Numbered from the stretch's first letter, positions 2,895 through 27,320 are shown. The stretch is DNA of 64,000 bases from Chloroflexi bacterium OHK40 (GCA_004367505.1 SFCB01000179.1:19526-83525), one strand, 5' to 3'. A program made the numbers and translations. Notes: generated by a model not told the origin, from the sequence alone.

Positions 2895-5190
2895 GGACTT
2901 TCTTCTCGGGTATGTGTTTGAGCGGTTCATCACAAACGGGCGAAAAGTCGCCTTGCTCCGTCCAACCCATCGGCTCGACGAGGATAGTCAGCGCTGGGTG
3001 GCCATCGAGCAGCCGACTCGGGAATTCCCGAATCGAGGTTGTGTAACCTGGATCAATGCGCCTGATGAGGCTCCAGAGCGCTCTATATGGATGTTTGAGT
3101 ATGGCTTCCACGACAGCTTTGACCTCTCTAGCCCTCGCGGAGACCGCTATCGAATCGACTTCAACCGGCAACCAGAGTCTCCTGTTGAGGTGATTAAGCT
3201 GCAAGTAAGTGGCATAGAAAGGGTGCAGCGAGCCCTCGCTAAGGGCCTATTGCTCGCATTTGTCCCGACAAGGCACGTCTACATCGTAGTCGATGGCGAT
3301 TCCTGGGTGGGGCCTGTGCGCCTCGTCTCGAGGGGTGAGCGCTGGTTCATCGACCCTCACATTCAGGCCCTTCCAATACCGTGTGTAGCGCCTGTCGCAA
3401 GCGCAGACCTGTTCACCCTTAAGATTGGCGATCGCCACCGAGCTTTGCTGCGTCATAAGATCCGACCTGAGATCAAGTTAGGCGAGGTCGACTGGGCAGA
3501 CGACGCGCTCAACCTCAAGCGCGTTCTGGAGTGGGCGCGCGAGCAGCCCGCGATCGCGCAGCCTCTGGAATTGACGAAGCGGGTTATCAAGCAAGTTGTA
3601 GAGGCGCTTCCCTCTGATGACAATGAGCTTCTCGCACAGCGGGTTCGACGAGCCCGTAGCTTCGTGGAAGAGCTCGGCGAGTTGGCCAAGGACACTGCCG
3701 CCTTTGAGCAGGAGATTCTCACTCTTCCCCAGGTCAGGCAGCGCCTTGAAGCTGCCGAGCGAGAGGGCCGCGCCGCAGCGAAGATGCAGGCTGAGGCCGA
3801 GGCGATCGCGCGGGCCAGGGCGGAGCTCGAGGCCACGAAGGCGGAGCAGGAGCGGCTCACCGAGACGCTAGCTGGCCTTCGGCAAGCCCTAGAGGCGGCA
3901 GAGAAACGAATGCACGAAGCAGACCAACACGCACGGGCAGCAGTAGATGCAGAGCTCGCGCGTCGGCGCCAAGAGCTCGAGGCACTCGACAACGCGCTCA
4001 CAGAACGAAGGCAGCAGCTTGAGACTGATCTGGGGCTTATGGACGCCGCTATGAGTGAGCGCCTCGCAGAGCTTAGTCGGCGCCCGGCCGAGACGCTCGC
4101 GCAGATCGCCATCTTCCGCGCGGTGCTCGCGGCTCAGGGAGTTGCTGGTGCGACACACTCGGCCGGAGCCTCACAGCTTAGGCCGCCCTCCACTGCTCTC
4201 TTGAGCGGTGAGGCACAAGCCGAGGATCAGAAGGACTTGGTGAACGCCGCCAAGCAGGCATCAGTAGCAGCAGGCGATGCCCCATCTGTCGGCGCTGCTC
4301 TCCACAGCGCGCTCGTCGGCGGCACGGTACCGTTGCTCGCAGGGCCTGGCGCCCTTGATATCCTGGAGGGCTACGCGAGTGTTGCGGCTGGTGGGCGTTT
4401 CCTATCTGTCACAGTTTCGCCCGCAGCCCTCGAGCCCGCAGACTTGCTCGCCAAGTTCGATGTCAACTCGCAGCGCCTGGTACTGCATCCCAGCGGCCTG
4501 CTTGACCTGCTGCTCTACGCCGGCCAGCCCGAACAGCGCGAAAAGCTCTTCCTCGCAGTGCTCGACGGCGTCAATCGGTCAGCCGCTGAGGCCTATCTCT
4601 TGCCAATCCTGGCGTGCTACAGCGCCGCCTGGGACAAGCATCGCCAGCGTGCGCTGCACCTCTTCCACCCGTCGGCGCTAGCTCCGGCAGACCCCTACGC
4701 CGTTACCGCCCGGCTGGTCTGGCCGCGGAACGTCTTGCTCGCGGGGACGCTCGTTGAAGGAGGGGCAACGGTGCCACTGCCGCCGGCACTGTGGTCGCAC
4801 GCGATCCTTATCAGCACAGGGGAAGCCCCGGCGTCCACGAAGCTTAAGGGGCGGGTCTCTCCTCCGCTAACAAGCGCATCATCGCTGAAGTGGGCCTCAT
4901 GGCGCTCACTCGCCATGAGCGATCTCGAATCCGGTCTTGAGGCTCTGGACGAGATCAAATCCGATGGCCTCCGCCTTCCCGCACCTATTGCCCACGCCTT
5001 TGCGCGCGCATACGTCTCAAGCAGCCACTGGCTCAAGTCGTCAGAGGCGAGGCGCCTGGCAGTACGCGGAGTGCTCCTACCCTATGCACTCGCCACAGGC
5101 CAGATCGAAGCACTGACGGAGGCTCTTGAGCTTGCAGAGGTGCGTCTCAGCGAGGCGGATCTTGATGGTGTGCGACAGGTGATTGCATGA
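2887..5190 (+). CDS. hypothetical protein with central coiled coil
   Basis: 767-aa ORF; long Glu/Ala/Arg heptad-like region around residues 260-400; ATGA overlap with next gene. Confidence 0.75.
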   Translation: MDRDFLLGYVFERFITNGRKVALLRPTHRLDEDSQRWVAIEQPTREFPNRGCVTWINAPDEAPERSIWMFEYGFHDSFDLSSPRGDRYRIDFNRQPESPVEVIKLQVSGIERVQRALAKGLLLAFVPTRHVYIVVDGDSWVGPVRLVSRGERWFIDPHIQALPIPCVAPVASADLFTLKIGDRHRALLRHKIRPEIKLGEVDWADDALNLKRVLEWAREQPAIAQPLELTKRVIKQVVEALPSDDNELLAQRVRRARSFVEELGELAKDTAAFEQEILTLPQVRQRLEAAEREGRAAAKMQAEAEAIARARAELEATKAEQERLTETLAGLRQALEAAEKRMHEADQHARAAVDAELARRRQELEALDNALTERRQQLETDLGLMDAAMSERLAELSRRPAETLAQIAIFRAVLAAQGVAGATHSAGASQLRPPSTALLSGEAQAEDQKDLVNAAKQASVAAGDAPSVGAALHSALVGGTVPLLAGPGALDILEGYASVAAGGRFLSVTVSPAALEPADLLAKFDVNSQRLVLHPSGLLDLLLYAGQPEQREKLFLAVLDGVNRSAAEAYLLPILACYSAAWDKHRQRALHLFHPSALAPADPYAVTARLVWPRNVLLAGTLVEGGATVPLPPALWSHAILISTGEAPASTKLKGRVSPPLTSASSLKWASWRSLAMSDLESGLEALDEIKSDGLRLPAPIAHAFARAYVSSSHWLKSSEARRLAVRGVLLPYALATGQIEALTEALELAEVRLSEADLDGVRQVIA

Positions 5191-6263
5191 GTGTGGCGAC
5201 GCAGCAACTTTCTGGTGATGACGCGCGTATGGCAGTCCTGCGGGCCCTTGGCCTCGCTGGCCTCTCTACTTCAGTCCCGCCCTGCCCTGCTCTCTGCGCA
5301 GAGGCCCTACGCGCGGCGCTCTGGTCGTACTGGGGCGCAACTGCCAAACCTGTCTACATCACGCGGCTCATCAATGCCGCTGCACGAACCTTGCTTCCCT
5401 GGCAGGAGAAACTTGGCGAAGACGACGAGAGGCTGAGCCAGCAGTTGCGAAATATGCTCCAGGAGATGGAGGTTATCGGCGATGTGGCTGCGCTGCCCAA
5501 TGGTCGCTGGAGCCCCACGCCGCCGCGGATCGTCCATGTCCCCGCGATCAGCCGGTGGCTGCTACTCGGTGGTCCCCCTTCGCGAGATCTGCCGACGCAG
5601 GTAGGCGCAGCTGTCGAGCGGATCGGGGTAGCCCGGCTGCTCCGCCTCCCACCCGGCGAGATCGATCTGGCCGTTGATGAGGTGCCGGAGCGCGAGTGGC
5701 TTCGGGCTCCGACGGAAAGCCTGGATGTCTGGGGCAGCGCCGTCCTCGATCGCTCGGCACTTACACCTGCGGGAGAGATTGACATCGAGGTCTACGCTCC
5801 AGCGGCCGCGCATCCGGCGGCAACACAGTTTGATCGTTGGAAGCTGCCAACGGCCAAGCTTGCGGATGGGTGCTATCTTGCCCGGATGCGCACCCGTCGC
5901 GGCGTAAGGGCGCACTACATCGTGCAGTTGGTGGGAGGTCGGGCCATCGCTGCGGGGCCGCCGCTTCTCGGTGACGGCGATGTGCGACGTCTTCAGTACG
6001 CTCTCGATCTGCTTGCTCACAACCCCGTCAGGGTCACTGGCACTCGCCAGCGTGACTGCTGGACGTTCAAGCTCCAGAGTGCGCTCCCACGCGCCGAGCA
6101 CCGGCTGCTCCTGGCGCTCGGTCGGGAACAGACTCCCGTTGATGGGAAGTATTACCCGCGTTGTTGGGTTATCCCCTCCAGCTATGCGCCGAGGGCGGAG
6201 AAGGCGCTGCGGGATCTCGGCATCTCGATAGAAGTCCATGAGCTACCAGAGGGAACCGTATGA
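5187..6263 (+). CDS. hypothetical protein, operon member
   Basis: 358-aa ORF; ATGA overlaps at both ends. Confidence 0.75.
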   Translation: MSVATQQLSGDDARMAVLRALGLAGLSTSVPPCPALCAEALRAALWSYWGATAKPVYITRLINAAARTLLPWQEKLGEDDERLSQQLRNMLQEMEVIGDVAALPNGRWSPTPPRIVHVPAISRWLLLGGPPSRDLPTQVGAAVERIGVARLLRLPPGEIDLAVDEVPEREWLRAPTESLDVWGSAVLDRSALTPAGEIDIEVYAPAAAHPAATQFDRWKLPTAKLADGCYLARMRTRRGVRAHYIVQLVGGRAIAAGPPLLGDGDVRRLQYALDLLAHNPVRVTGTRQRDCWTFKLQSALPRAEHRLLLALGREQTPVDGKYYPRCWVIPSSYAPRAEKALRDLGISIEVHELPEGTV

Positions 6264-9200
6264 CTACTGAGCCAACAACCAGTGTTCGGGCAGGGGTTCA
6301 GCAGATCGCCGACTCTCTACGCTCGCGCCTACAGCGCTACATCGAGGCCGCCTACCACCTCCGCGACCAGGGAGTGGTGGAGGAGCGGCGTGCACTCCTT
6401 GCTGAGCGAGGGTCGATAGCGCGTGAGCCCTTCCTCGAAACCACCCCCTCCTACGAGCTTGGTGCGCCCTATGGCCAGCTGCATCTCCCCAGTGAGGTTA
6501 GCGCCATACTTGCAGAGCTCTCGGCCTGGGAGCCAGGAGTCGGGATTTTCCCCCGTCCGTATCGACACCAGGCAGAGGCGCTCGAGGCATTTTTCAGCGA
6601 TCGGCGAGATCTTATCGTTTCGACGGGCACCGGCTCAGGCAAAACCGAGACATTCCTCCTCCCAATCCTCGGGAGCTTAGTAGAGGAGGCGTCGTCTCGG
6701 CCAGCTTCATTCCGGCAGCCAGGTTTCCGCGCGCTGCTGCTCTATCCGATGAACGCTCTGGTCAGCGACCAGATCGCACGCCTGCGGCGGCTGTTCGGCG
6801 ACGAGCGGCTCAGTGGCCTCTTCCGCAGTCGTTACGGGCGGCACCCCCGCTTCGGGATGTACACAAGTCGCACCCCGTATCCCGGCCCTCGCGACTCGAA
6901 GAAGGACAGTCTGCACCTCAAGCAACTCCTCAGCTATTACCTTGATCTGGAGGATGCCGCCCAGCGTGAGGGGCCGGGCTCGGACAGCAGCCGCCTTATG
7001 GTCGAGCTCAAGTCACGGGGGCGCTGGCCGGCCAAGGATCTGCGCGGGTTTTTCGGCGCACCGGGCGGCGTATGGGAGAAGCGGCTGCACACCCAGGCTG
7101 GCGACCGCGAGCTCCTGACGCGCCACGAGATGCAGCTCTCCTGCCCCGATATCCTCGTCACTAACTACTCGATGCTCGAGTACATGCTCGTGCGGCCGAT
7201 CGAGCGGGGCATCTTCGAGCAGACGCGGAGATGGCTGGCGAGCGATCCGGCCAACAGCCTCATCCTCGTGGTCGACGAGGCGCATCTTTATCGGGGGACG
7301 GCCGGCGCCGAAGTGTCTTATCTCGTCAGGCGGCTCCAAGCGCGCCTGGAGATCCCACGCGAGCGGTTGCGCTGCATCCTCACCAGTGCGAGTCTCGGGC
7401 CGGACACGACGGTCGAGAGGGATGCAGTCGCCTTCGCCGAGGCGTTGACCGGTTCCCCTGCGAGCGGTGGGCGGTCGTTCCATCTGGTGTGTGGCTACCG
7501 AGAGCCGCGACCAGCAGGGGCTCCCGGCAGCATGGATCAGGCGATGGCGCTCGCCGGTTTCGATCTGGCTGCTCTGGCGCGACACGCCCTTGCGCCTGAC
7601 GAGGCCGCTGCCGCGGTGGAGGCTCTTGGGCGTAATCTGGGCTGGCCCGCCCACCCTGCCTGCCAAAGCGACGATGCCGGACAAGCGCTCCAGGGATACG
7701 TCTATGATCAACTCTACGGGTTTGGGCCGCTGGAGTTGTTGATCGCCGAGACAACGGGCCGCGCCATCGGACTCCCAGAGCTAGCCGGTAGGCTCTTCCC
7801 GGGTGTGACGCCCGACACTGCCGGTCGGGCGACCGAGGCGCTCCTGACGCTTGGCACCTACGCCCACAACGGCCAGCGGTCGCTGCTCCAGACTCGCGTC
7901 CACATGCTCTTCCGCGGCCTGCCCTCCCTCTGGGCCTGCGTCAACCAGTGCTGTTCGGCCCGGCTTAGCCCCACCTCGGGCCCAGCGCTACTCGGCAGGC
8001 TCTACACTGAGCCCCGCACCCACTGTGAGTGCGGCGCTCGTGTCTACGAGTTGCTGGCGCACCGCGATTGCGGCGCCGTCTTCCTACGGGTGTTCGGCGA
8101 AGGCGACCGGCCGAACTTCTACTGGCACGAGGCGGGAGGGCGCGTTGAACGTACGGCCCGTCCACTTGAGGAGAGTTGGCTGATCGTAGAACGCCCGCAC
8201 CGCAAGCAGGAACAAGATGGCCTGGTTGAGCCAATCTGGATTGATGTAACAACGGGCCGGGTTGAGCTCGTTCCGCCTACGGAGCCGGAGCGCTACCGCC
8301 AGCTATGGCGGCCGATGCCGAAGGCACGTGCAGCCGAAGACGATGAGGCGCCATGGATAGGCGCAGTGTACCCTTTCACGCAATGCCCGGTGTGCCTGCG
8401 GAAGACGCCCGAGAAGTTGCTGGATCTGGCCACCCGCGGCGAGCGCCCGTTCGCCAATCTCGTCCACGAGCAGTTCATCTCTCAGCCGCCCAGCCGGCCG
8501 TTCAGCGAGAAGTTCCCAAATGGTGGCAGGAAAGTGTTGCTCTTTGCGGACGGGCGCCAGAAGGCGGCAAGGCTTGCCCGTGATCTGCCACGCGAGGTTG
8601 AGTTCGATACCTTCCGCCAGGCACTCGCGCTCGCTGTACAGCGACTCAGGGATCTCAATGAGGAGCCAACGCTCGGCCCCCGACTCTATGCCGCTTTCGT
8701 CTCCGTCTGCCACGATCTGCGGTTGCACTTCTTTGACCGGGAGTTCGACTCGCAGCGACAGCTCCTGCAACACATAGACGAGTTCGAGCGCTACCACGAT
8801 GCGGATCTGGAGACAGCGCTCAGCGAAGGGGATGCGCCGTTCTCTGATCCGCCTATGCACTACCGCCAGCATCTGCTAGATCAGCTCGCAAACCCGTTCT
8901 ATGCAGTCTACAGACTCGGCGCTATGGTTGCCCGTCCCTCCCGCGCTATGATCCGACGGATGCTGCGCGAGCTCGAAGCTTTCCCCGAGACTGTGCGCAA
9001 TCAGATCGAAGTGATTACTACGTTCTGGGCGGAGACCTTGCTGGAGCGGGGGGCGTTTGATAAGGGTATACCGCCCCGCGTGCGTGAGCGAGTGTTGGCC
9101 TTTGCTAGGCCGCCGAAAGATGGGGCTACGCTCAGAGATCTCGAGAAGGTGCTGAAGGACGGGGCGAGTCTGAGCGACGATCAGCTGAAGCGGCTACGGG

Positions 9201-11728
9201 TTGTGCTCTACGATGTGATGACTGAGCGGGATGACAGCGGTTTGGCGTATCTGCGACCCACCGCTCTTGTGCTGGAACTCAAGTTCGACGACACGTGGCT
9301 GCGCTGCGCCGCGTGTGGCAACCTCCAGCGCGTCCCGCTCCTTGGGCGCTGCGCCGTCTGTGGAGGGCAGCAGCTTGATCCCTGCCCGCCGGACGAGCCG
9401 ACCACCGCCGCGCGCTACGATTACTACCGCGCGCCGCTGCGGGATGTTCTGCGCGGCGGACGCCCAGCCCACCTTACCGCGGAGGAGCATACGGCGCAGC
9501 TCTCACATCGTGACGCAGGTCGCGTCTACGCGACTACTGAGGAGTACGAGCTCCGTTTTCAAGATATCGCGATCGGCAAAGACAAGCCCCCTGTTGATGT
9601 ACTGAGCTGCACAACGACCATGGAGGTGGGCATCGATATTGGCTCACTCGTCGCAATCGGGATGCGGAATGTGCCGCCACAGCGTGAGAACTACCAGCAG
9701 CGCGCGGGCCGGGCGGGCCGGCGCGGCTCGGCGATCTCAACCGTGGTGACATATGCGGACGGCGGGCCTCACGACCACTATTACTATCATCACCCAGAGG
9801 GTATGATCGCGGGTGACCCGCGCCGGCCGATGCTCAGCATTGACCGGCAGGCCCTTGCCCGGCGGCATATCTGCGCCTACTTGCTCCAGACGTTCTTTCA
9901 CGAGCAGATCGAGCGGCTTGATCCGGGGGAGCGCGAGCGGCTTGAGCGAGAGCGTCGTAGCCTGTTCACCGCACTTGGTACCAGGGAGGAATTTTTCAAG
10001 GGAGATGGGTCACTCTCCTTCAGGGCCTTCCAAAACTGGATCGGCACTCGCGTCCAGAACCCCGAGGGCAGTATTGCTCAGGCAACTGCTGCCTGGCTGC
10101 CAGATGAAGTCGTTTCCGGGGGGGCAGACGCCAAGCGCGCCTTTGTGGCGTCCACCGCAATAGCGCTGATCGAGGATCTACAGCGTCTTAGCTCATCCGG
10201 TTCTCCAAGAATCACCGGTAACACAGGGGCAGGAGTCAATACCGAAGCGGCAGAGAGTGGGCTGCTCGACGCAATGTTCGACGCCGGGATGCTGCCGAGC
10301 TATGCCTTCCCCACCGATCTCGCGACGTTCTATATCTTCGAGCGCGACGGCGAGAATGTGCGAGTCAAGGAGCGCCCCCAGCAGAGCAAGTCCCAGGCCC
10401 TGAGCGAGTACGCTCCCGGGCGGCTCCTGGTAGTGAACAAGGAGACCTACCGGGTCGGCGGCATCTTCGTTGAGGGACAAGGCTACGATGCCCCTGCGCG
10501 GGGGTTGTTCGCGAGTTCGCTGCCTGCGTACGTCTACTGTCCAGAGTGTACGTACGTCCGGCTGGAGCCGCTGAATAGCGCCGAGTGCTGCCCGGTATGT
10601 CGTGCCGAGTTGCAATCGAGCGAGTTGCTTAACCCACCCGGTTTCTCACCGGAGGGCGGCCGACCCGTAGGTGACCGCGACCGTGACCAGGAGATCAGCT
10701 ATGCCACGGGCGCCCAGTTGCCCCTCCCGGTGGCGCAGGACGAGTTGGAGTGGCGTCTGGGCGCGTGGCCGAACATACGCTACGCGTACGCGGAAAACCG
10801 GCGCTTCGTCACTGTCAACAGGGGGCCAGGCAGTGAGGGGTTCGTGGTCTGTGAGTCCTGCGGGGCCGCGTGGCCCACGGCCAACGCCCCACGAGTTGGC
10901 GCGCACGATCGCCCCTACCTCACACCTGCACACCACGGTCGAGCGCAGTGTCGCGGGCCGCTTCACCCTGGGCCGCTCTACCTCGGCACAGACTTCCGTA
11001 GTGACCTACTGCTCCTGCGCGCAACACTGCGGCAGCCATTCGGCTACAGTCCGGGCGACCCATGGCTGCACGACGCGCTGCGCACGACGTCAGAGGCGCT
11101 TGCCTTAGCCGCGAGCAGAGTGCTCGACGTTGATCCCGCTGAACTGAGCGGAGGCCACCGTCTGCTGCCGGTGACGAATGGAAGCGATGGAGTAGCGAGT
11201 TTCGACCTTTACCTCTTCGACACAGCATCAGGCGGGGCGGGGTATGCAGCCGAGGCGGGCGCCGATGTAGGTACCATCCTGCAGGCAGCCCTAGAGCTCG
11301 TGGAGGGTTGTCCGCGCCAGTGTGAGCGCTCCTGCACACGCTGTCTGCGACATTACGGCAATCGCTTTTGGCATGGCTCCTTGGACCGGCGCCTTGCTAC
11401 CCAGGTTCTGCGCCACCTGATGTTCGGAGAGGTTCCAATGGTCCCGCCGTTCGAGGTTCAGCGCCGCATCCTAGCCCCGCTACAGCGCTTCCTCGAACTG
11501 GAGGGATGGGAGGTCGAGCGAAATCAGGACGAGGCGCCCCTGTCTGTTCAGTGGAGTGGTCAGCAGATCTTGATCGGTGTTTACCCTGCTCTGCTTGACC
11601 TTCATGCCTCGGGGTTCAGCCATCCACTTGCCGGAGGTGGAGTGCTGCTCCGCGATTATGTGGTGGTGCGCGATCTCCCAGCCGCCTATGCGGAGTTGCG
11701 CCGATCGGCCCGTGCTGCGCGGCGCTAG
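6260..11728 (+). CDS. large DEAD/DEAH-box helicase with DUF1998-type C-terminus (DpdJ/DruE/MrfA-like superfamily)
   Basis: Walker A STGTGSGKTETFLLPI; VVDEAHLYRGTAGAE; CTTTMEVGIDIGSL; QRAGRAGRRG; several CxxC pairs; C-terminal CERSCTRCLRHYGNRFWHGSLDR. Confidence 0.9.
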   Translation: MTTEPTTSVRAGVQQIADSLRSRLQRYIEAAYHLRDQGVVEERRALLAERGSIAREPFLETTPSYELGAPYGQLHLPSEVSAILAELSAWEPGVGIFPRPYRHQAEALEAFFSDRRDLIVSTGTGSGKTETFLLPILGSLVEEASSRPASFRQPGFRALLLYPMNALVSDQIARLRRLFGDERLSGLFRSRYGRHPRFGMYTSRTPYPGPRDSKKDSLHLKQLLSYYLDLEDAAQREGPGSDSSRLMVELKSRGRWPAKDLRGFFGAPGGVWEKRLHTQAGDRELLTRHEMQLSCPDILVTNYSMLEYMLVRPIERGIFEQTRRWLASDPANSLILVVDEAHLYRGTAGAEVSYLVRRLQARLEIPRERLRCILTSASLGPDTTVERDAVAFAEALTGSPASGGRSFHLVCGYREPRPAGAPGSMDQAMALAGFDLAALARHALAPDEAAAAVEALGRNLGWPAHPACQSDDAGQALQGYVYDQLYGFGPLELLIAETTGRAIGLPELAGRLFPGVTPDTAGRATEALLTLGTYAHNGQRSLLQTRVHMLFRGLPSLWACVNQCCSARLSPTSGPALLGRLYTEPRTHCECGARVYELLAHRDCGAVFLRVFGEGDRPNFYWHEAGGRVERTARPLEESWLIVERPHRKQEQDGLVEPIWIDVTTGRVELVPPTEPERYRQLWRPMPKARAAEDDEAPWIGAVYPFTQCPVCLRKTPEKLLDLATRGERPFANLVHEQFISQPPSRPFSEKFPNGGRKVLLFADGRQKAARLARDLPREVEFDTFRQALALAVQRLRDLNEEPTLGPRLYAAFVSVCHDLRLHFFDREFDSQRQLLQHIDEFERYHDADLETALSEGDAPFSDPPMHYRQHLLDQLANPFYAVYRLGAMVARPSRAMIRRMLRELEAFPETVRNQIEVITTFWAETLLERGAFDKGIPPRVRERVLAFARPPKDGATLRDLEKVLKDGASLSDDQLKRLRVVLYDVMTERDDSGLAYLRPTALVLELKFDDTWLRCAACGNLQRVPLLGRCAVCGGQQLDPCPPDEPTTAARYDYYRAPLRDVLRGGRPAHLTAEEHTAQLSHRDAGRVYATTEEYELRFQDIAIGKDKPPVDVLSCTTTMEVGIDIGSLVAIGMRNVPPQRENYQQRAGRAGRRGSAISTVVTYADGGPHDHYYYHHPEGMIAGDPRRPMLSIDRQALARRHICAYLLQTFFHEQIERLDPGERERLERERRSLFTALGTREEFFKGDGSLSFRAFQNWIGTRVQNPEGSIAQATAAWLPDEVVSGGADAKRAFVASTAIALIEDLQRLSSSGSPRITGNTGAGVNTEAAESGLLDAMFDAGMLPSYAFPTDLATFYIFERDGENVRVKERPQQSKSQALSEYAPGRLLVVNKETYRVGGIFVEGQGYDAPARGLFASSLPAYVYCPECTYVRLEPLNSAECCPVCRAELQSSELLNPPGFSPEGGRPVGDRDRDQEISYATGAQLPLPVAQDELEWRLGAWPNIRYAYAENRRFVTVNRGPGSEGFVVCESCGAAWPTANAPRVGAHDRPYLTPAHHGRAQCRGPLHPGPLYLGTDFRSDLLLLRATLRQPFGYSPGDPWLHDALRTTSEALALAASRVLDVDPAELSGGHRLLPVTNGSDGVASFDLYLFDTASGGAGYAAEAGADVGTILQAALELVEGCPRQCERSCTRCLRHYGNRFWHGSLDRRLATQVLRHLMFGEVPMVPPFEVQRRILAPLQRFLELEGWEVERNQDEAPLSVQWSGQQILIGVYPALLDLHASGFSHPLAGGGVLLRDYVVVRDLPAAYAELRRSARAARR

Positions 11729-12487: not shown

Positions 12488-13291
12488 ATGAGTGCCACGC
12501 CCTCCGGTCGGCTGCTGATCAGCCACATCACCCTGCGCGGCCCCGAGCTCGCCCAGGTATATGCGCACATCGCGGCGCGCCCGGAGTTGAGCGCCGAGGA
12601 TCTCCGCCTACACTTCTGCCCCAGCGCCGCAGGCTCGTCGCCGTTCGAGCTCGCGGACGCGCCGCTGCGCGAGGCGCTCAGCTTCCTCAGCCTCGCCGGG
12701 CTGGTCGAGGCGCGCGGCCGGCAGCGGCGCTACACCGCCTCGCCGCTGCTCCCCGGCGCCCCCTTCCCGCTCCTGCTCCTCCATCATCTCCGCGCCCACC
12801 CCGAGGAGCGCCAGCGCGCGATCAGCCTCGTCCACCAGTCGCTTGTCGCCAACGACGCCCTCACGACAACCGTGGCGACGCTCCGCGACCAACTCGAGCG
12901 CGGGCCGTACCGTGACCTCTTCGCCTGGACCGGCGAGAAGGTGACGCTCTGGGCGCACCTTGCGAGCTACCTCGGCCTCATCCGGTGCATCGAGCGTTCA
13001 GCCGAACTGCTCGTCGTCCCATCGCTCGAGCTCACGCTTGCCGCACTCACCTGGGCGACGCTGAAGCTCGGGAGCGACAGTTCGCTCGATGCTGCCCTAC
13101 GCCGCATCGACGCGGACCTCTTCGCCTGCTTCACCGCCCGCAGGCGCGTCCACCGCGGCCTCGCGCAGACGCTCCTGGCCCTGGAACGCGTGGAGAGGCT
13201 CCGCCTCTCCCACAGCGCGGACGCCGCCCGCTCCCTGCTGCTCGGCGAGCGCCGCGTGAGCGACCTGGCGCTGCTCGTGGAAGTGAGCTAA
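12488..13291 (+). CDS. DpdG-like protein
   Basis: 267 aa, winged-helix-like N-terminal half; directly upstream of a DpdH-like ATPase and near TGT/DpdA-like genes; assignment leans on context. Confidence 0.5.
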   Translation: MSATPSGRLLISHITLRGPELAQVYAHIAARPELSAEDLRLHFCPSAAGSSPFELADAPLREALSFLSLAGLVEARGRQRRYTASPLLPGAPFPLLLLHHLRAHPEERQRAISLVHQSLVANDALTTTVATLRDQLERGPYRDLFAWTGEKVTLWAHLASYLGLIRCIERSAELLVVPSLELTLAALTWATLKLGSDSSLDAALRRIDADLFACFTARRRVHRGLAQTLLALERVERLRLSHSADAARSLLLGERRVSDLALLVEVS

Positions 13292-13304
13292 AGGGGCCTA
13301 ACAA

Positions 13305-16124: not shown

Positions 16125-16518
16125 ACGCGCGTTGACGGAGGCCATTACCGGCACGCTGAGGGATGTCGCGGCGCTGGAGGAGTTGGACCGAGTGGGGCGG
16201 GCCTATGCCGAGGTGCAGGGGCGCCTCGCCTTCCTGAACGACCTCGCGCGGCGCCTGGAGGCCGAGCTCGGCGCGCTGAGGGCGGAGGCTGTCGGCGACG
16301 AGGCCGCCGAGGAGGTGTGGCGGCTGACGCAGCAGGAATTGCGCATCAGGGCGCCTTCCGGCCTCCGCGCTCCGGCGACGGCGCTGGTCGCCGGTGGCGT
16401 TGACCTGCTCAGGCTGGTGGAGTATACTGGCGCGGCCATCGCCCTTGTCCAGGAGCGTCGCGCCCAGCTTCGCGCCTCGCCGCACGGCTTGGCCGGGGCT
16501 CAGCGGGGGCAGAGCTAG
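16117..16518 (+). CDS. small helical/coiled-coil protein coupled to the ATPase
   Basis: 8-nt overlap (ATGGATGA) with upstream ATPase. Confidence 0.6.
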   Translation: MDERALTEAITGTLRDVAALEELDRVGRAYAEVQGRLAFLNDLARRLEAELGALRAEAVGDEAAEEVWRLTQQELRIRAPSGLRAPATALVAGGVDLLRLVEYTGAAIALVQERRAQLRASPHGLAGAQRGQS

Positions 16519-16550
16519 CGACCGTACCAGTCGACGTCGCACACTCGGGA

Positions 16551-17453
16551 CTATGGGGCCCGGGCCTCGTGGAGGCAACGTCGGAGGTGATAGTAGTTGT
16601 GAACGGCTCGCAGGTTCACGGCCGCCTTGCCCTGCTGCTCCATCATCGCCCCCGGGCTCTCGCGGCAGACGGGGCAGTTGCAGGGGAGCGGCTCCTCGAG
16701 GATCTCGGCGAGCCCATAGCTCCGCCGCCACTCGCGGAAGTGCGGGCTTGGCAGCTTGTAGCGCCTGAAGGGGTCACTGTAGATCAGGCCGCCGCTCGCC
16801 GCCTCCTTGATCGGCGTGCCTGAGTCGGCGGAGTCGACGCCGAGGCGGGCCAGCGAGGCGAGCACGGCCACCGAGCTGACGCCCAGGATGTGGAGTCGAG
16901 GGCCGACCGCCTCGAGGGCTGCCTCCACGCGGCGCAGCACCTCGTCGCGGGCCCCCGCCACCTTGGCGGCCAGGGAGCCCAGGGCGAATCGTTCATATCC
17001 CATATCGGCGAGCGCCTGCGCGACGTAGAAGACCTGCTCAACAGTGTGGCCCTGAATGACGCCAATAGGCTCGACATGATCCCTCAGACCGCCAGACTCC
17101 AGGTAGGTGATGAGCCAGTGCGCGTGGGCGAGGCTCTGCGCGGAGCGGCGCGCCGCCTCCTCGGGGCTGCGCACGCCGATCATCAGGACGTCCAGGTGGC
17201 AGATCGCCGCCGGTGCCCCCAGGCCCTCCAAGATCCGCAGCTGCTGCCGGAGCGCCTCTTCGGGAGAGGAGCCGCGCCCGGCCCGGTGGTGCTGGAACGC
17301 CCCGCTGTCGACGATCAGCTCCTCCGGCGGGCAGGGCCAGTCGCCGGCATGCCAGGTCTGGCTGACGTTCGGCGGGCTGACCAGGGCTCGAACCTCCGGC
17401 AGATACTGCTGGTAGACCGGGTCGCTGTGGGTCCACGAGACGAAGTACTTCAT
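16551..17453 (-). CDS. TGT-fold protein, DpdA-like (paralogue 1)
   Basis: IVDSGAFQHH; IGVIQGHTVEQVFYVAQALADMGYERFALGSL; GVDSADSGTPIKEAASGG; zinc signature CNCPVC...H. Confidence 0.8.
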   Translation of the reverse strand: MKYFVSWTHSDPVYQQYLPEVRALVSPPNVSQTWHAGDWPCPPEELIVDSGAFQHHRAGRGSSPEEALRQQLRILEGLGAPAAICHLDVLMIGVRSPEEAARRSAQSLAHAHWLITYLESGGLRDHVEPIGVIQGHTVEQVFYVAQALADMGYERFALGSLAAKVAGARDEVLRRVEAALEAVGPRLHILGVSSVAVLASLARLGVDSADSGTPIKEAASGGLIYSDPFRRYKLPSPHFREWRRSYGLAEILEEPLPCNCPVCRESPGAMMEQQGKAAVNLRAVHNYYHLRRCLHEARAP

Positions 17454-17560
17454 GCCGGCACGTCAACCGCATGAGCGATTGCCGCAGAGACAGCTGGGCC
17501 ACAGCAGCCCAGCCGCAGGCCGATGAGTGCAAGCTCGGCAGCCTGTTGGTTCGTTCTCAC

Positions 17561-17574
17561 ATAAAGAACTTTAT
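17561..17574. promoter_or_regulatory. candidate XRE operator in the divergent intergenic region
   Basis: ATAAAG-AA-CTTTAT perfect inverted repeat; overlapping GTTCT-N7-AGAAC. Confidence 0.5.
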
Positions 17575-17607
17575 ACCCGCTTGGGGCGCCGCCCGCAAGG
17601 GGGGGCT

Positions 17608-17847
17608 GTGATCAGCCGGCTAGGCAAGAAGGTGCGCTACCTGCGCGAGCGAGACGGCCTCAGCCAGAGCGAGTTGGCGCAGGCCCTCGGGCTCAGCGAG
17701 AGCTCGAAGGGGTTCATCAGTGAGATCGAGAGCGGCAAGAAGCTACCGCGTGCCGAGCTCCTGCTGCGGCTGGCCGACCTGTTCGGCGTGACCACCGACT
17801 ACCTCCTGCGCGACGACCAAGGCGCTGATCAGGACGAGGCCAGTTGA
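17608..17847 (+). CDS. XRE-family HTH transcriptional regulator
   Basis: ISRLGKKVRYLRERDGLSQSELAQALGLSESSKGFISEIESGKKLPRAELLLRLADLFGVTTDYLL; GTG start preferred over the upstream ATG at 17527 in the ORF track. Confidence 0.85.
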   Translation: MISRLGKKVRYLRERDGLSQSELAQALGLSESSKGFISEIESGKKLPRAELLLRLADLFGVTTDYLLRDDQGADQDEAS

Positions 17848-17850
17848 GCT

Positions 17851-19068
17851 ATGACGATCCGCTACTTTATCCCCGACTGGGACGACCGTGTAGACCCCGG
17901 CTACAATTTTCTCACCGATGAGCACTCGCACGGCCGCAACCCATACCGGGACGATCGCTACGCCCACGAGCTCTACCCCGAGCCGCCCTACGACGGGGTG
18001 CTGCTCTCGCGCGCCGTGATCGACGACAGCCCGGCGAAGGGCGACGCGATCCTCGATGCCGGGTCGGTGCACCGTTACCTGAGGCTGCCGGCCGACCACC
18101 CGGTGATCGGCGACTGCGGTGCTTTCAGCTACTGGCAGGCCGAGGAGCCACCCTACCGGACCGACGAGATCCTCGAGTACTACCAGCGACTCGGCTTCGA
18201 CATTGGCGTCTCGATCGACCACCTGATCTTTGCCGAGCTGGAGGACGAGAGACAGCGCCGGTGGGACATCACTCTCCAGAACGCCGAGGATTTCCTCGTG
18301 CAGCACCGCGCCGGCGGCTATACCTTCACCCCGATGGGCGTCGCCCAGGGATGGAACCCAGCCTCTTACGCTCGGGCCGCCAGGGCGCTCATACAGATGG
18401 GCTACACCCACATCGCCGCCGGGGGGCTGGTGCGGAGCCAGACTGCGGACGTGGTCGCGGTGCTTGCCGCGATCCAGGCGGAGCTGCGGCCGGGCACGCA
18501 GCTGCACCTCTTCGGCGTCAACCGCCCGGAGCAGATCGGCACCTTCGCGCAGCTTGGCGTGACCAGCTTCGACAGCGCATCGAGGCTGCGGCGGGCCTGG
18601 ATGGATGGCCGGCGCAACTACTTCCTCGGCAACAGCGCCTATACGGCCATCCGCGTCCCGGAGGCGCGAGCCCTCGCCAAGAAGAAGGGTGTCGATGAGG
18701 CGACGGCTCTGCGTCTTGAGCGGGCGGCCCTGGGCGCCCTGCGCGCCTACGACGCCGAGGAGATTGGCCTAGACGAGACGCTGGGCGCGGTGCTCGCCTA
18801 CGCCGCGCTCTTTGGCGAGATCAGCAAGAGCATTCGTCGCGACTACTACAGGACACTCGCCCAGCGGCCCTGGACCTACTGCCCCTGTGAGATCTGCATC
18901 CGCATTGGCGTCGAGGTGGTGATCTTCCGCGGCAACAACCGCAACAGGCGGCGTGGCTTCCACAACACCTGGCAGCTCTACCGCCAGCTGCGCGGCGAGG
19001 CGCAGGAGCTCCCGCCCCCGCTCCCGGACGACGGGCAGGGCGCCGCGCAGTTCACCCTCAGTCTATGA
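17851..19068 (+). CDS. TGT-fold protein, DpdA-like (paralogue 2)
   Basis: GDCGAFSYW; FDIGVSIDHLIF; GVAQGWNPASYARAARALIQMGYTHIAAGGLV; FGVNRPEQIGTFAQLGVTSFDSASRLRRAWMDG; zinc signature CPCEIC...H. Confidence 0.85.
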   Translation: MTIRYFIPDWDDRVDPGYNFLTDEHSHGRNPYRDDRYAHELYPEPPYDGVLLSRAVIDDSPAKGDAILDAGSVHRYLRLPADHPVIGDCGAFSYWQAEEPPYRTDEILEYYQRLGFDIGVSIDHLIFAELEDERQRRWDITLQNAEDFLVQHRAGGYTFTPMGVAQGWNPASYARAARALIQMGYTHIAAGGLVRSQTADVVAVLAAIQAELRPGTQLHLFGVNRPEQIGTFAQLGVTSFDSASRLRRAWMDGRRNYFLGNSAYTAIRVPEARALAKKKGVDEATALRLERAALGALRAYDAEEIGLDETLGAVLAYAALFGEISKSIRRDYYRTLAQRPWTYCPCEICIRIGVEVVIFRGNNRNRRRGFHNTWQLYRQLRGEAQELPPPLPDDGQGAAQFTLSL

Positions 19069-19071
19069 GCG

Positions 19072-19832
19072 GTGCTACCGCTCATTCTCGCCGCGGCGAT
19101 CTGCCGTGCCCTGGATGAGGCCTACGGTCAGCCAGACCTCGGCAACCACGCCGACCCGGCGGATGAGCTGATCTACATCCTGCTCTCGACGATGACGACC
19201 GAGACCAACTGCCAGCGTAGCTACGCCGCCCTGCGCACGGCGCTGCGCACCTGGGACGCGGTGCTGGTGCCGCCGGTTGAGCAGGTCGAGGCGGCGATCG
19301 CCGGCGGCGGGCTGGCGCCGCCGAAGACGTGGCTGATCCAGGAGTTCCTGTGCCGGCTGCGGTGCGACTGGGGCAGATTCGACCTCGACTTCATGCGGGC
19401 GTGGGCCGCGGGGGACCTGCGCCGTTACCTCACCACACTGCCGGCATCGGCTACAAGGCGGCCACGTGCATCATCGCCACCACGCTGCCGGGCATCGGCT
19501 ACAAGGCGGCCACGTGCGTCATCGCCTACAGCTTCGGGCGGAACATCTGCCCCGTGGCCACTCACACCTACCGGGTGGCTGTGCGCCTCGGCCTTATCCT
19601 GCTCGAGACGCCGGCGCTTGGGCGCAAGGTTCACCTGGCCATCGAGATGGCGCTGACCCAGGGCGAGCGGCTGGGCTTCCACATCAACGCGATGGCCCAT
19701 GGGCGCTGCTTGTGCTCCGTCGAGCGGCCCGTGTGTGATGGCTGCCCGGTGGCCGAGCACTGCGTCGCGCCCGAGCGGGGGCGGTACAGCCGGCAAGGTG
19801 GCGAGGGCGCGGACCTCGGCGGGGTTGGGTAG
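19072..19832 (+). pseudogene. endonuclease III-like HhH-GPD protein with Fe-S cluster motif, frame-disrupted by 47-bp tandem duplication
   Basis: N-part in frame 1 (19072-19656 ORF), C-part in frame 0 (19329-19832 ORF); LPGIGYKAATCVIAYSFG...THTYRV; C-X6-C-X2-C-X5-C. Confidence 0.85.
19438..19531 (+). repeat. 47-bp tandem duplication inside the HhH motif
   Basis: CTGCCGGCATCGGCTACAAGGCGGCCACGTGCATCATCGCC... followed by CTGCCGGGCATCGGCTACAAGGCGGCCACGTGCGTCATCGCC... Confidence 0.9.
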
Positions 19833-22202: not shown

Positions 22203-22982
22203 TCAGCGGCGCGAGATCGCAGCGGGGAGCCCCTCCACGGCGCGCTCCACATCCACGCCCAGCGCGAGCAGCGCGCGGCGGGCGTTGGCGGCGTCAAACT
22301 TCGTGGTCGGCAGACCGCTAATCACGCCCGCTAGCCACTTGGCGGAGACCGGGCGGCCGTCGACCACCACGTACCAGTCGCGGTAGCGGCCGGCGCCTGC
22401 GCCGTCGGAGACGAGCGCCGCCCGCGCCCGCTCCAGCACCTCCTCGCGGGAGAGCCGCAGCTGGACGCCCGAGAGTACGACCTCGCCACGTGGCGTCTCC
22501 GGCGCGACGATGCGCTCGGGGCGCGATGCTGAGGGTGGCACCCAGGCCCGCCCCTCCAGCCAGGCCCTGAGCTGGCCGAGCTTCTCGCCCATCATGCCAT
22601 CGGTGAGCGTCACACCCACTCCCTCCGGCACGTACGCCTCCCAGCCCGCCATCGCGCGCAGGTAGCGGTCGCTCACCCCGAGGCAGAGTTGCTCGTAGCC
22701 GCGACCCATCAGCCCCTGGAATGCCGCGAGTATCTGGGGGCGCAGCTCGTCGGCGCGCTCGGGGGCCATCGTGCGCTCGTAGTCGGGGATGGGCGTGGCG
22801 CCAGGGATGAGGCCGTACTCGGCGGAGAGGCCGTAGACGTCGAGGTCGGCGGCGAAGATCGGCTGCTCGTGCTGGTAGCTGCGCAGCACGCGCCAGAGCG
22901 GGCCGTCGTAGCGCTCCACAGCGGGGAGCGGCTCGGCGTCGCCGCGTTTGCGGGCGGAGCACTTGAGGATCAGGAGGCGCAT
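22203..22982 (-). CDS. DUF6884/YaaA-like protein with extra C-terminal domain
   Basis: MRLLILKCSARKR...YDGPLWRVLRSYQ...YGLSAEYGLIPGATPIPDYERTM. Confidence 0.6.
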   Translation of the reverse strand: MRLLILKCSARKRGDAEPLPAVERYDGPLWRVLRSYQHEQPIFAADLDVYGLSAEYGLIPGATPIPDYERTMAPERADELRPQILAAFQGLMGRGYEQLCLGVSDRYLRAMAGWEAYVPEGVGVTLTDGMMGEKLGQLRAWLEGRAWVPPSASRPERIVAPETPRGEVVLSGVQLRLSREEVLERARAALVSDGAGAGRYRDWYVVVDGRPVSAKWLAGVISGLPTTKFDAANARRALLALGVDVERAVEGLPAAISRR

Positions 22983-23066: not shown

Positions 23067-23092
23067 ACTATAGCACACTTCCGTGCTATACT
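23067..23092. promoter_or_regulatory. back-to-back extended -10 elements between divergent genes
   Basis: TATAGCAC-N6-GTGCTATA; plus strand TGCTATACT, minus strand TGCTATAGT. Confidence 0.5.
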
Positions 23093-23160
23093 CTCCGGAC
23101 TGGTGCCGGGCGCCAGGGCTTCAACCCTCAGCCCTTCCTTCGATCGTGCCAGGAGGAGCC

Positions 23161-23658
23161 ATGCCCCGGGTCTACGTCGCCGGGCCGCTGTTCAACACCC
23201 ACGAGCGCTGGTACCTCGAGCGCATCGCCGAGTCCTTGGAGAGCGCGGGCTACGCCACCTTTCTGCCGCACCGCGACGCCGGCCTGATCGATCTGCAGAG
23301 CCCGGCGTCGCAGGCGAAGGTCTTCCGCGACGATATCACGGCGCTCGATAGCTGCGACCTGTGCGTGGCGCTACTCACTGGGCCGGACCAGGACTCCGGC
23401 ACCAGCGCCGAGTTGGGCTATATGTTCGCCTATGGCAAGCCCTGCTTCGGCATCAGCGACGACTTCCGCTACCTCAACAACATGCTCTGGGGCATCTGCG
23501 GCGAGGGGCGACGCATGGCGAAAGATATCCCGGGGTTGATGGCCCTGCTGGCGGACTGGCGCGCCGCAGGCGTGCCGGGGCACAGTGGCGCCCGGCTCGG
23601 CCCACAGCGGGCGGAGCTTGCTCGCCAAGACCGAGACGATCATACGCCGGCGCAGTGA
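23161..23658 (+). CDS. nucleoside 2-deoxyribosyltransferase family protein
   Basis: VYVAGPLFNTHERWYLERIAESLESAGYATFLPHRDAG...LDSCDLCVALLTGPDQDSGTSAELGYMFAYGKP. Confidence 0.85.
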   Translation: MPRVYVAGPLFNTHERWYLERIAESLESAGYATFLPHRDAGLIDLQSPASQAKVFRDDITALDSCDLCVALLTGPDQDSGTSAELGYMFAYGKPCFGISDDFRYLNNMLWGICGEGRRMAKDIPGLMALLADWRAAGVPGHSGARLGPQRAELARQDRDDHTPAQ

Positions 23659-25500: not shown

Positions 25501-25511
25501 ACGTCCGGCAC

Positions 25512-26084: not shown

Positions 26085-26088
26085 CGGC

Positions 26089-26604
26089 TCACCCTTGGGC
26101 CGGTCGGGCCACAAGCCGGCGCCAGGTGAGGATGAGCCCGACGGCCAGCGCCGTCATCCAGAGCTTGCCGACGATCTGGCCAGGAAGGAAGCTCAGTGAA
26201 CCAAAGGCCAGCCAGAGGAAGAGGGCGCTATCTACCACGATGCCCACGGTGTTCGAGGCAACCACGGCGCCGAGCCAACTCTTCCGGCGCAGCGGCGTGT
26301 AGACTGCGAAGTCGGCCAGTTCGCTAAAGAGGAAGGCAAGGCCGCTCGCCAGCGCCAGCTGCGCGCTCAGCCCGGCCGACACTGCGGCGCCGGTGATGAT
26401 GGCGGCGATCACCCAGCGGCGCCCGATGGCCTCCTGCAGGGCGTCGCGGAGTGAGAAGGCGAGGCCGGCAAAGTAGACCCCCGCGGGGGCCACCAGGCCG
26501 AAGCCAACCGGCACGATGCCAAACATCGTGATCGCCAGGTTGGCGGCGAAGATCGTCAGGATGTAGCCGACGAGCGTGATGATGCCGACGGTGCGCTGGG
26601 ACAT
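26089..26604 (-). CDS. VUT/YhhQ family (COG1738) preQ0 transporter
   Basis: Multiple TM segments; MSQRTVGIITLVGYILTIFAANLAITMFGIVPVGFGLVAPAGVYFAGLAFSLRDALQEAIGRRWV. Confidence 0.8.
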   Translation of the reverse strand: MSQRTVGIITLVGYILTIFAANLAITMFGIVPVGFGLVAPAGVYFAGLAFSLRDALQEAIGRRWVIAAIITGAAVSAGLSAQLALASGLAFLFSELADFAVYTPLRRKSWLGAVVASNTVGIVVDSALFLWLAFGSLSFLPGQIVGKLWMTALAVGLILTWRRLVARPAQG

Positions 26605-26615
26605 GGGGCTCCTCA

Positions 26616-27320
26616 CTAAAGGTCTTCTGGCTGGCGGTATGGCGCGCATCCCGACCAGTCGATCGCAACAGCGTAAGGGATCGGGTCGATGACGCCCACC
26701 GCGCGGAAGGCGCCGACGCGCAGTTGGCAGGCGTCGCATGTGCCGCAGGCGCGCTCTCCGCCGAGGTAGCAGGTCCAGGTAAGATGGATGGGTGCGCCGA
26801 GTGCGATGGCCCGGCGCACGATGGCGGCCTTGTCATCGGCGATGAGCGGGCGGGCGATGGTGAACTCGCGCTCGGTGGCGAGGCGCAAGGTCTGCTCGGC
26901 GGCGGCGAGGAAGGGCTCGCGGCAGTCCGGGTAGTTCAGCGCGTCGGCTCCGTTCCAGCCGCCGACCAGATGCGTGGCCGGGCCAAGCAGCGCATGGGCC
27001 ACGGCGTAGGAGATCAGGATCAGGTTGCGGTTCGGGACGTAGGTTGGCGCCACTGTCTCGTCAAGCGCGCTGAGGTCGCGCCCCTGGGGGATGTCGCCCT
27101 GGCCGGTGAGACGCGAGCCGCGGATCGGCGCGAGGGTGAGAGTCTGGTGGGGTACGCGGTAGTAGGCGGCGACAGCCTCGGCCGCCGCGATCTCGCGGGC
27201 GTGGCGCTGTCCGTACTCGAAGGATAGGGCGCCGAGCACGGTGATGCGCTCGCTCAGCGCCCAGGCGAGAGCGGTGACGGAGTCGAGTCCGCCACTCAGC
27301 AGTATCAGTGCATCGGGCAC
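26616..27320 (-). CDS. queC: 7-cyano-7-deazaguanine synthase
   Basis: LILLSGGLDSVTALAWAL; PNRNLILISYAVAHAL; Zn motif CGTCDACQLR; GTG start with AGGAG upstream. Confidence 0.92.
   Translation of the reverse strand: MPDALILLSGGLDSVTALAWALSERITVLGALSFEYGQRHAREIAAAEAVAAYYRVPHQTLTLAPIRGSRLTGQGDIPQGRDLSALDETVAPTYVPNRNLILISYAVAHALLGPATHLVGGWNGADALNYPDCREPFLAAAEQTLRLATEREFTIARPLIADDKAAIVRRAIALGAPIHLTWTCYLGGERACGTCDACQLRVGAFRAVGVIDPIPYAVAIDWSGCAPYRQPEDL

What the first reader, a model, noticed from the sequence alone, without database searches (positions are those of the whole stretch)
16551..19068. Two different DpdA-like (TGT-fold) proteins flank an XRE regulator: a Dpd-like DNA 7-deazaguanine modification locus with unusual architecture
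Both proteins keep TGT landmarks (DSGAF / DCGAF substrate motif, GxxQG loop, SADSG / SFDSAS loop, CxCxxC...H zinc site) but are clearly different in sequence and lie on opposite strands. Established: DpdA is the TGT-family enzyme that inserts preQ0 into DNA in dpd clusters. The presence of DpdG/DpdH-like genes, a DUF1998 helicase and QueC/YhhQ nearby fits a modification-restriction island. Not seen in this window: recognisable DpdB (ParB-like) or classical DpdC. Two TGTs could mean a heterodimer, two target motifs, or a DNA/RNA split.
Basis: partly seen in the sequence, partly recalled or inferred. Interest (0 to 1): 0.92.

Follow-up and report, generated by a model that had tools for sequence, protein, structure and literature searches.

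The report
Two-transglycosylase variant of Dpd DNA-modification defence
This bacterial defence locus carries two different base-swapping (transglycosylase) enzymes side by side, a pairing found in related loci across several phyla and in archaea, and wherever the second enzyme is present a partner protein (DpdB) of the known system is missing, so the second enzyme may do its job.

Summary
Window 17851-19068 (+) is a true DpdA (NCBIfam DpdA 464.7 bits, cut-off 200). Window 16551-17453 (-) is a separate compact TGT-fold protein ("TGT2", 300 aa) that fails the DpdA, tRNA-Tgt and ArcTGT cut-offs but keeps the catalytic aspartates and the zinc site. An XRE gene lies between them. They sit in a Dpd-type island: DpdJ and DpdK just upstream of the window, a Druantia type I-like DruB-E block, DpdG, DpdH, and downstream a divergent DpdC-like DUF6884 protein, YhhQ and the genome's only QueC.

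The pairing is conserved. In 399 genomes of the phylum, all three with a full-length DpdA carry TGT2 in the same locus. Two-TGT islands also occur in Paenibacillus, Deinococcus, cyanobacteria and haloarchaea, with three distinct TGT2 clades. None of these loci has the partner protein DpdB, whereas 12 of 14 other DpdA plasmids do.

Best explanation: TGT2 (with an ATPase such as DpdG/H) takes DpdB's place as DpdA's partner in putting preQ0 into DNA. Locus identity is well supported; the partner role is inferred. The papers I could read do not describe the two-TGT arrangement; one large census required dpdAB and so excluded it. Verdict: new variant of a known kind.

The parts
17851..19068 (+). 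DpdA: DNA-guanine transglycosylase, 405 aa
   Evidence: NF041059 464.7 bits (cut-off 200), PADLOC DpdA 431 bits; best solved relative 7ui4 DNA-guanine transglycosylase E 3.6e-95; nucleophile and Zn motifs intact, DpdA-type D-H-L motif present
16551..17453 (-). TGT2: compact second TGT-family protein, 300 aa
   Evidence: Pfam TGT 48.4 bits; NF041059 61.4 (<200), TIGR00449 39.1 (<47.6), TIGR00432 32.8 (<350); profile best PDB match 7ui4, then ArcTGT 1iq8; own starred clade; D49, D88, D210, C258/C260/C263, H285 invariant
17527..17847 (+). XRE-type regulator between the two TGT genes
   Evidence: HTH_3 51.8 bits; conserved in L014, L063, L064, L065, L066
16117..16518 (+). p133: conserved small protein between DpdH and TGT2, no family
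   Evidence: no Pfam/PADLOC/NCBIfam match; conserved in L016, L061-L065
13305..16124 (+). DpdH-like ATPase
   Evidence: NF041065 62.1 bits over the N-terminus, below cut-off 450; AAA_22; hhalign to DpdH profile 99.5%, E 1.3e-22
12488..13291 (+). DpdG-like protein
   Evidence: no direct family hit, but hhalign to a profile holding Enterobacter DpdG 96.7%, E 4.7e-10; sits directly before DpdH
6260..11728 (+). DruE-type YprA-family helicase with MZB zinc domain, 1822 aa
   Evidence: PADLOC DruE1 1915.6 bits; DEAD, Helicase_C, MZB; relative in L089 2818 bits next to DpdG
5187..6263 (+). DruD-like
   Evidence: PADLOC DruD1 92.8 bits
2887..5190 (+). DruC-like, coiled coil
   Evidence: PADLOC DruC1 30.6 bits
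1242..2894 (+). DruB-like
   Evidence: PADLOC DruB1 16.8 bits, weak; position in the operon
22203..22982 (-). DpdC-like DUF6884 protein
   Evidence: DUF6884 22.5 bits and PADLOC DpdC 15.8 bits, both weak; hhalign 96.6% to the DUF6884 domain that is fused to DpdA elsewhere, and that domain 97.2% to classical DpdC; conserved in L015, L063, L066
26616..27356 (-). QueC, preQ0 synthase, only copy in the genome
   Evidence: TIGR00364 164.9 bits (cut-off 150.3); single PF06508 hit in the assembly
26089..26739 (-). YhhQ/VUT-type queuosine-precursor transporter
   Evidence: Vut_1 34 bits; TIGR00697 29.6, below cut-off
19072..19832 (+). Nth-like HhH-GPD DNA glycosylase directly behind dpdA, out of frame here
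   Evidence: readable in two frames with a 36-nt repeat at 48-nt spacing, 19443-19526; intact homologue in L063 scores HhH-GPD 30.6 bits

Best explanation
This is a Dpd-type DNA 7-deazaguanine modification-restriction island of a recurrent two-transglycosylase kind. QueC (and YhhQ import) supplies preQ0. DpdA swaps guanine for preQ0 in host DNA. TGT2, together with a P-loop ATPase module (here DpdG/DpdH), takes the place of DpdB as DpdA's partner, most likely as a second, catalytically competent subunit of a heteromeric TGT that positions or opens the DNA; TGTs work as dimers and eukaryotic TGT is a heterodimer. The DpdC-like DUF6884 protein then converts preQ0 in DNA to a derivative such as ADG. 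DpdJ, DpdK and the Druantia-like DruB-E block attack DNA that lacks the mark. Shown by sequence: gene identities, conservation of the pair, lack of DpdB, intact active sites in both. Inferred: DNA as substrate, partnership, order of steps, effector role. My odds: Dpd-type locus about 0.88; TGT2 substituting functionally for DpdB about 0.45; physical heterodimer about 0.3.
For: DpdA is an equivalog-level match. All three phylum genomes with full-length DpdA carry TGT2 in the same locus (hypergeometric p 9.5e-7). In the order, TGT2 occurs in 9 of 84 genomes, adjacent to DpdA or its remnant in all. In G246, G061 and G402 both genes are damaged or lost together. Two-TGT islands in Paenibacillus, Deinococcus, Nostoc, Picosynechococcus and nine haloarchaeal plasmids. 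DpdB (PF14072): 0 of 13 two-TGT plasmids, 12 of 14 other DpdA plasmids; also none in G000, G322, G327, G011, G401, G432. Cyanobacterial plasmids show both states, each exclusive. D102/D156/D280-equivalents conserved in every TGT2 of the DpdA-linked loci. TGT2 stands next to a P-loop ATPase or helicase gene or gene pair in nearly every two-TGT locus. TGT dimers: PMC6884629. DpdB ATPase drives insertion: as cited in PMC12839542.
Against: Only about three independent TGT2/DpdB contrasts exist on the DpdA tree, so the complementarity is not significant after correction for relatedness. [quoted passage not shown] Acetobacter has DpdA with neither DpdB nor a second TGT; Methylorubrum lacks DpdB too (TGT count not done). 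TGT2 is divergent from DpdA and its position ties it to DpdG/H as much as to DpdA. Haloarchaeal TGT2 lies with a different ATPase and a protein that is not DpdG. Structure models were too poor to look at interfaces (pLDDT 45 and 50).
Confidence: 0.5

Rival explanations
1. Two independent transglycosylases: DpdA marks DNA with preQ0, while TGT2 marks a second DNA motif or inserts a different 7-deazaguanine; they do not form one enzyme.
For: TGT2 keeps all catalytic aspartates and, except in cyanobacteria, the zinc site. The families are strongly diverged and form separate clades. TGT2 has GS where DpdA has GG in the base-binding loop in Chloroflexota and haloarchaea.
Against: Does not explain why DpdB is missing whenever TGT2 is present nor the shared loss of both genes. 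Only one QueC/preQ0 supply is encoded.
Confidence: 0.22
2. TGT2 is a reader or checkpoint of the restriction side: it works with DpdG/DpdH to sense whether DNA carries the mark, without lasting base exchange (as CBASS Cap10 is a TGT fold remodelled to bind a deazaguanylated protein).
For: TGT2 is next to DpdG/H in Chloroflexota, Paenibacillus and Deinococcus, and to another ATPase in haloarchaea. In Deinococcus a second G/H pair goes with TGT2. Cap10 precedent: PMC11996544.
Against: Complete conservation of the nucleophile and general-acid positions is not expected of a pure reader. No PADLOC family other than DpdA is hit.
Confidence: 0.15
3. TGT2 is an RNA enzyme: a tRNA transglycosylase that travels with the island.
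For: TGT fold; haloarchaeal TGT2 resembles ArcTGT (129.9 bits, TIGR00432).
Against: The window TGT2 fails all tRNA-TGT cut-offs, lies closer to DpdA than to tRNA TGTs in PDB searches, and the genome has two other TGTs of the canonical kind. It is linked to dpd genes.
Confidence: 0.08
4. Decaying or chance neighbourhood: the pair is a relic with no joint function.
For: The neighbouring Nth-like and threonine-aldolase-like genes are out of frame; several relatives carry truncated copies.
Against: Open frames of 63-68% identical proteins in the same order in other genomes of the family, and conservation across phyla.
Confidence: 0.05

Closest known systems
Dpd (7-deazapurine in DNA) systems, e.g. 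S. Montevideo dpdABC + dpdD-K
   Same: DpdA, DpdG-, DpdH-, DpdJ- and DpdK-like genes, QueC, YhhQ, DpdC-like protein
   Different: No DpdB; an extra TGT; DpdE and DpdF not found near; a Druantia-like DruB-E block instead; DpdC-like protein highly diverged
BRIGADE (Bell et al. 2025 preprint, PMC12458937)
   Same: Dpd-branch YprA helicase (DpdJ) plus an ARMADA/Druantia-clade YprA helicase (DruE) with a 7-deazaguanine gene set. Haloarchaeal loci with this gene content read here also carry two TGTs; the plasmid of one (Halomicrobium salinisoli) has protein accessions in the same series as BRIGADE's representative helicase
   Different: BRIGADE was reported only in haloarchaea and its main text never mentions a transglycosylase; here the host is a Chloroflexota bacterium and the second helicase is Druantia type I-like
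BREX-related capture (BRC) systems, PMC12839542
   Same: A TGT in a DpdB-less, DpdC-less defence locus, with an NTPase proposed to replace DpdB
   Different: TGT in only a subset of loci, with PglZ, HerA/FtsK and BrxC-like parts not seen here
Druantia type I
   Same: DruE1-type helicase (1915.6 bits) with DruB-, DruC- and DruD-like genes in order
   Different: No DruA recognised; embedded between DpdJ/K and DpdG/H
Eukaryotic QTRT1/QTRT2 TGT (own knowledge)
   Same: Two diverged TGT paralogues working together
   Different: tRNA enzyme; one subunit has lost catalytic residues, whereas both are intact here
CBASS Cap10 (PMC11996544)
   Same: TGT-family protein in antiviral defence with 7-deazaguanine chemistry
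   Different: Acts on a protein N-terminus; no PADLOC hit of TGT2 to anything but DpdA

Membership tests
DpdA (for 17851-19068) | NF041059 equivalog score at or above 200 bits | tested here: met
   464.7 bits over 3-381
DpdA (for 16551-17453) | NF041059 equivalog score at or above 200 bits | tested here: not met
   61.4 bits over 96-218 only; own clade
tRNA guanine transglycosylase Tgt/TgtA | TIGR00430, TIGR00432 or TIGR00449 score above cut-off | tested here: not met
   TGT2: 27.0/306.75, 32.8/350, 39.1/47.6; DpdA: 18.4, 45.3, 28.0
TGT superfamily | Pfam TGT above gathering score, catalytic Asp residues and CxCxxC...H zinc site | tested here: met
   48.4 and 43.5 bits; motifs
Dpd system | DpdB (DGQHR/DndB-family partner) | tested here: not met
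   PF14072 0 hits in the assembly
Dpd system | DpdC | tested here: inconclusive
   DUF6884 protein at 22203-22982 linked to DpdC by profiles; PF03883 0 hits
Dpd system | DpdG and DpdH | tested here: met
   hhalign 96.7% and 99.5%; DpdH below its NCBIfam equivalog cut-off, DpdG without direct family hit
Dpd system | DpdJ helicase and DpdK nuclease | tested here: inconclusive
   upstream of the window, contig C129:12991-17910 (504.9 bits, cut-off 800) and 17918-18430 (81.1, cut-off 100)
Dpd system | 7-deazaguanine present in host DNA | not testable with these tools
   needs LC-MS
BRIGADE | Two YprA helicases, one Dpd-branch and one ARMADA/Druantia-clade, with 7-deazaguanine genes | tested here: inconclusive
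   DpdJ and DruE present; no YprA tree was built to place DruE in the BRIGADE branch, and it matches Druantia type I best
BRIGADE | Haloarchaeal host (as reported) | tested here: not met
   host kin to Oscillochloris, Chloroflexota
Druantia type I | DruE1 with DruA-D | tested here: inconclusive
   DruE1 1915.6, DruD 92.8, DruC 30.6, DruB 16.8 bits; no DruA seen
Heterodimeric TGT | Physical DpdA-TGT2 complex | not testable with these tools
   no complex prediction offered; single-chain models pLDDT 45-50

The most novel reading that the evidence does not exclude
A second transglycosylase, recruited perhaps more than once (a compact form near DpdA in bacteria, an ArcTGT-like form in haloarchaea, a zinc-less form in cyanobacteria), has replaced the DpdB ATPase as DpdA's partner. 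This would make a heteromeric DNA-guanine transglycosylase and a second, DpdB-independent route of inserting 7-deazaguanine into DNA, spread over bacteria and archaea.
Probability: 0.35. Interest if true: 0.82.

Novelty: new variant of a known kind. Interest (0 to 1): 0.7.

Why it matters
How DpdA gets at guanines in double-stranded DNA is an open question, and DpdB is the only known helper. A natural class without DpdB but with a second TGT gives a direct genetic and biochemical test. It also shows that surveys requiring dpdA plus dpdB (as in PMC11888242) miss a class found in five phylum-level groups, and that the haloarchaeal BRIGADE gene content has bacterial counterparts. The DUF6884-DpdA fusions in several of these islands tie the DpdC step physically to DpdA.

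Tried and rejected
Both proteins as tRNA TGTs: rejected by cut-offs, tree and PDB ranking. TGT2 in phages or viral contigs: none found. One common origin of all TGT2s: AU test p 0.081, not rejected, so I do not claim three independent recruitments; TGT300 plus haloarchaeal TGT2 as one clade p 0.012. Haloarchaeal 'hypothetical + BREX ATPase' as DpdG/DpdH: not supported. AlphaFold2 models of both TGTs with two-row alignments: pLDDT 44.6 and 49.7, so no fold search was run. A naive Fisher test of TGT2 versus DpdB (p 2.7e-6) is not used as evidence on its own because relatedness leaves about three contrasts. QueC-family paper PMC13329287: no mention of Dpd or TGT. The founding Dpd papers (PMC4801273, PMC10164549) and a 2024 review (PMC10966956) are not held, so a mention of a second TGT there cannot be excluded.

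Full report
OBSERVATION. Pfam TGT is above its gathering score in both. The 17851-19068 protein is an equivalog-level DpdA: NF041059 464.7 bits against a cut-off of 200, with the DNA-guanine transglycosylase 7ui4 as its closest solved relative. The 16551-17453 protein, called TGT2 here, reaches only 61.4 bits for DpdA and fails all tRNA-TGT cut-offs. A five-sequence TGT2 profile ranks 7ui4 first (E 7.7e-12), then archaeal ArcTGT, then bacterial Tgt. TGT2 and DpdA are about 30% identical.

ACTIVE SITES. An alignment of 59 TGT-family proteins shows that every TGT2 of the DpdA-linked loci keeps the equivalents of the substrate Asp (DSG), the second Asp and the nucleophile Asp. Zinc ligands are kept in the Chloroflexota, Paenibacillus, Deinococcus and haloarchaeal forms and missing in the cyanobacterial one. 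The His that follows the second Asp in DpdA (D-H-L/I) is absent from the window TGT2 and most TGT2s; a conserved DpdA histidine is discussed in PMC6884629. TGT2 has Gly-Ser where DpdA has Gly-Gly in the base-binding loop in Chloroflexota and haloarchaea.

SURROUNDINGS. Reading from the upstream contig into the window: DpdJ-like helicase (contig C129:12991-17910, 504.9 bits) and DpdK-like PLD protein (17918-18430, 81.1 bits, just under the cut-off of 100); a TPR protein; DruB-, DruC-, DruD- and DruE-like genes (PADLOC DruE1 1915.6 bits); DpdG-like (hhalign 96.7%); DpdH-like (99.5%); p133; TGT2; XRE; DpdA; an Nth-like glycosylase; then a DUF6884 protein, a nucleoside deoxyribosyltransferase-like gene, DUF366, YhhQ and QueC. 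QueC is the only copy in the genome and passes its equivalog cut-off. QueD-family proteins are encoded elsewhere. The Dru block has third-position GC of 0.64-0.73 against 0.79-0.91 in the genes around it, so it probably arrived separately.

THE MISSING DpdC. The DUF6884 protein (22203-22982) matches PADLOC DpdC only weakly (15.8 bits), but the DUF6884 domain fused to the N-terminus of DpdA in Paenibacillus scores 47.7 bits for DpdC. Profile comparison links window protein to fused domain (96.6%) and fused domain to classical DpdC (97.2%), the direct comparison being weak (50.8%). PMC11888242 also lists DUF6884 as a DpdC domain. So a DpdC-like step is likely present, in divergent form.

CONSERVATION OF THE PAIR. 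In 399 genomes of the phylum TGT2 occurs in five and full-length DpdA in three, all among the five (p 9.5e-7). In all 84 genomes of the order TGT2 occurs in nine, and DpdA or its remnant is adjacent in all. In G061 one deletion has taken parts of both genes, and in G246 TGT2 is gone while DpdA is a fragment, although DpdG, DpdH and the Nth-like gene remain. An Oscillochloris contig shows the full order; it has the same length as that of G400 and is probably the same record.

BEYOND THE PHYLUM. TGT2 plus DpdA islands were found on plasmids of Paenibacillus (with DpdJ and DpdK), Deinococcus (with DpdE, F, H and a second G/H pair behind TGT2; its DpdA is highly diverged), Nostoc and Picosynechococcus, and nine haloarchaea. 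In the last, TGT2 is followed by a protein of unknown family and a BrxC/D-like ATPase that are not DpdG/DpdH. The tree puts TGT2s into three starred clades apart from DpdA and canonical TGT. Haloarchaeal TGT2 is ArcTGT-like (129.9 bits). One origin of all TGT2s is not excluded (AU p 0.081).

DpdB. PF14072 finds no DpdB in any of 13 two-TGT plasmids nor in G000, G322, G327, G011, G401 or G432 (G061 has a strong DndB on another contig), and finds it in 12 of the other 14 DpdA plasmids, often as dpdB-dpdA-dpdB. PF01702 gives one TGT in the latter and two or more in the former; W27's DpdA and W18's DpdA fell short at that threshold, and Methylorubrum was not searched. The two states are mutually exclusive in all 27 plasmids, and cyanobacteria show each. 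After correction for relatedness there are only about three contrasts, so this is a strong lead, not proof.

MECHANISM. PMC12839542 summarises that DpdA inserts preQ0 with the help of DpdB ATPase and that DpdB may be dispensable in some clusters; PMC6884629 recalls that TGTs act as dimers. The simplest model is that TGT2, next to an ATPase module, replaces DpdB as DpdA's partner. Whether as heterodimer, second specificity or reader is not settled, and DNA chemistry is untested.

WHAT IS KNOWN. BRIGADE (PMC12458937) joins Dpd genes with ARMADA/Druantia-clade helicases, in haloarchaea only; its text does not contain the words TGT, DpdA or transglycosylase. The census in PMC11888242 required dpdAB, which by design leaves out two-TGT islands. 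I found no description of a two-TGT Dpd system, but the founding Dpd papers were not readable here.

VERDICT. Real, conserved, and a new variant of a known kind with a testable link to an open mechanistic question.

Noticed in passing
window 19072-19832 (+): Nth-like HhH-GPD glycosylase gene directly behind dpdA is out of frame and holds a 36-nt repeat at 48-nt spacing (19443-19526); intact homologues follow dpdA in L063 and L065. A base-excision role in this defence locus is an open idea.
   Followed up: partly
window 24375-25511 (-): D-threonine aldolase/alanine racemase-like gene split over two frames; a single intact frame in L015 3651-4751.
   Followed up: no
L016 4210-5331: An open frame that joins a DruB-like N-terminus to a DruE-like C-terminus next to DpdG: a remnant of a deleted Druantia block beside an intact DpdG-DpdH-TGT2-DpdA set.
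   Followed up: partly
window 1242-11728 versus 12488-19068: Third-position GC of the Dru block (0.64-0.73) differs from the Dpd block (0.79-0.90), suggesting separate acquisition.
   Followed up: partly
L036, L067, L068, L071, L072, L073: Alphaproteobacterial plasmids have dpdA flanked by two different dpdB genes (dpdB-dpdA-dpdB) with queE, queD, queC.
   Followed up: no
L027, L030, L031, L033, L018: DpdA fused to an N-terminal DUF6884 (DpdC-like) domain, about 690-715 aa.
   Followed up: partly
window 23083-23658 (+) and 25512-26114 (-): Nucleoside deoxyribosyltransferase-like and DUF366 proteins sit between the DpdC-like gene and YhhQ/QueC and keep this neighbourhood in L015; possible deazaguanine salvage roles.
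   Followed up: no
G000 contig C159:232-1305 (L007): A second canonical-like Tgt paralogue (303.5 bits) besides the main Tgt on C77; similar second copies in G322 and G327.
   Followed up: no
L029, L038-L040, L044, L075-L078: Haloarchaeal TGT2 is always followed by a roughly 300-aa protein without family and a BrxC/D-like ATPase.
   Followed up: partly
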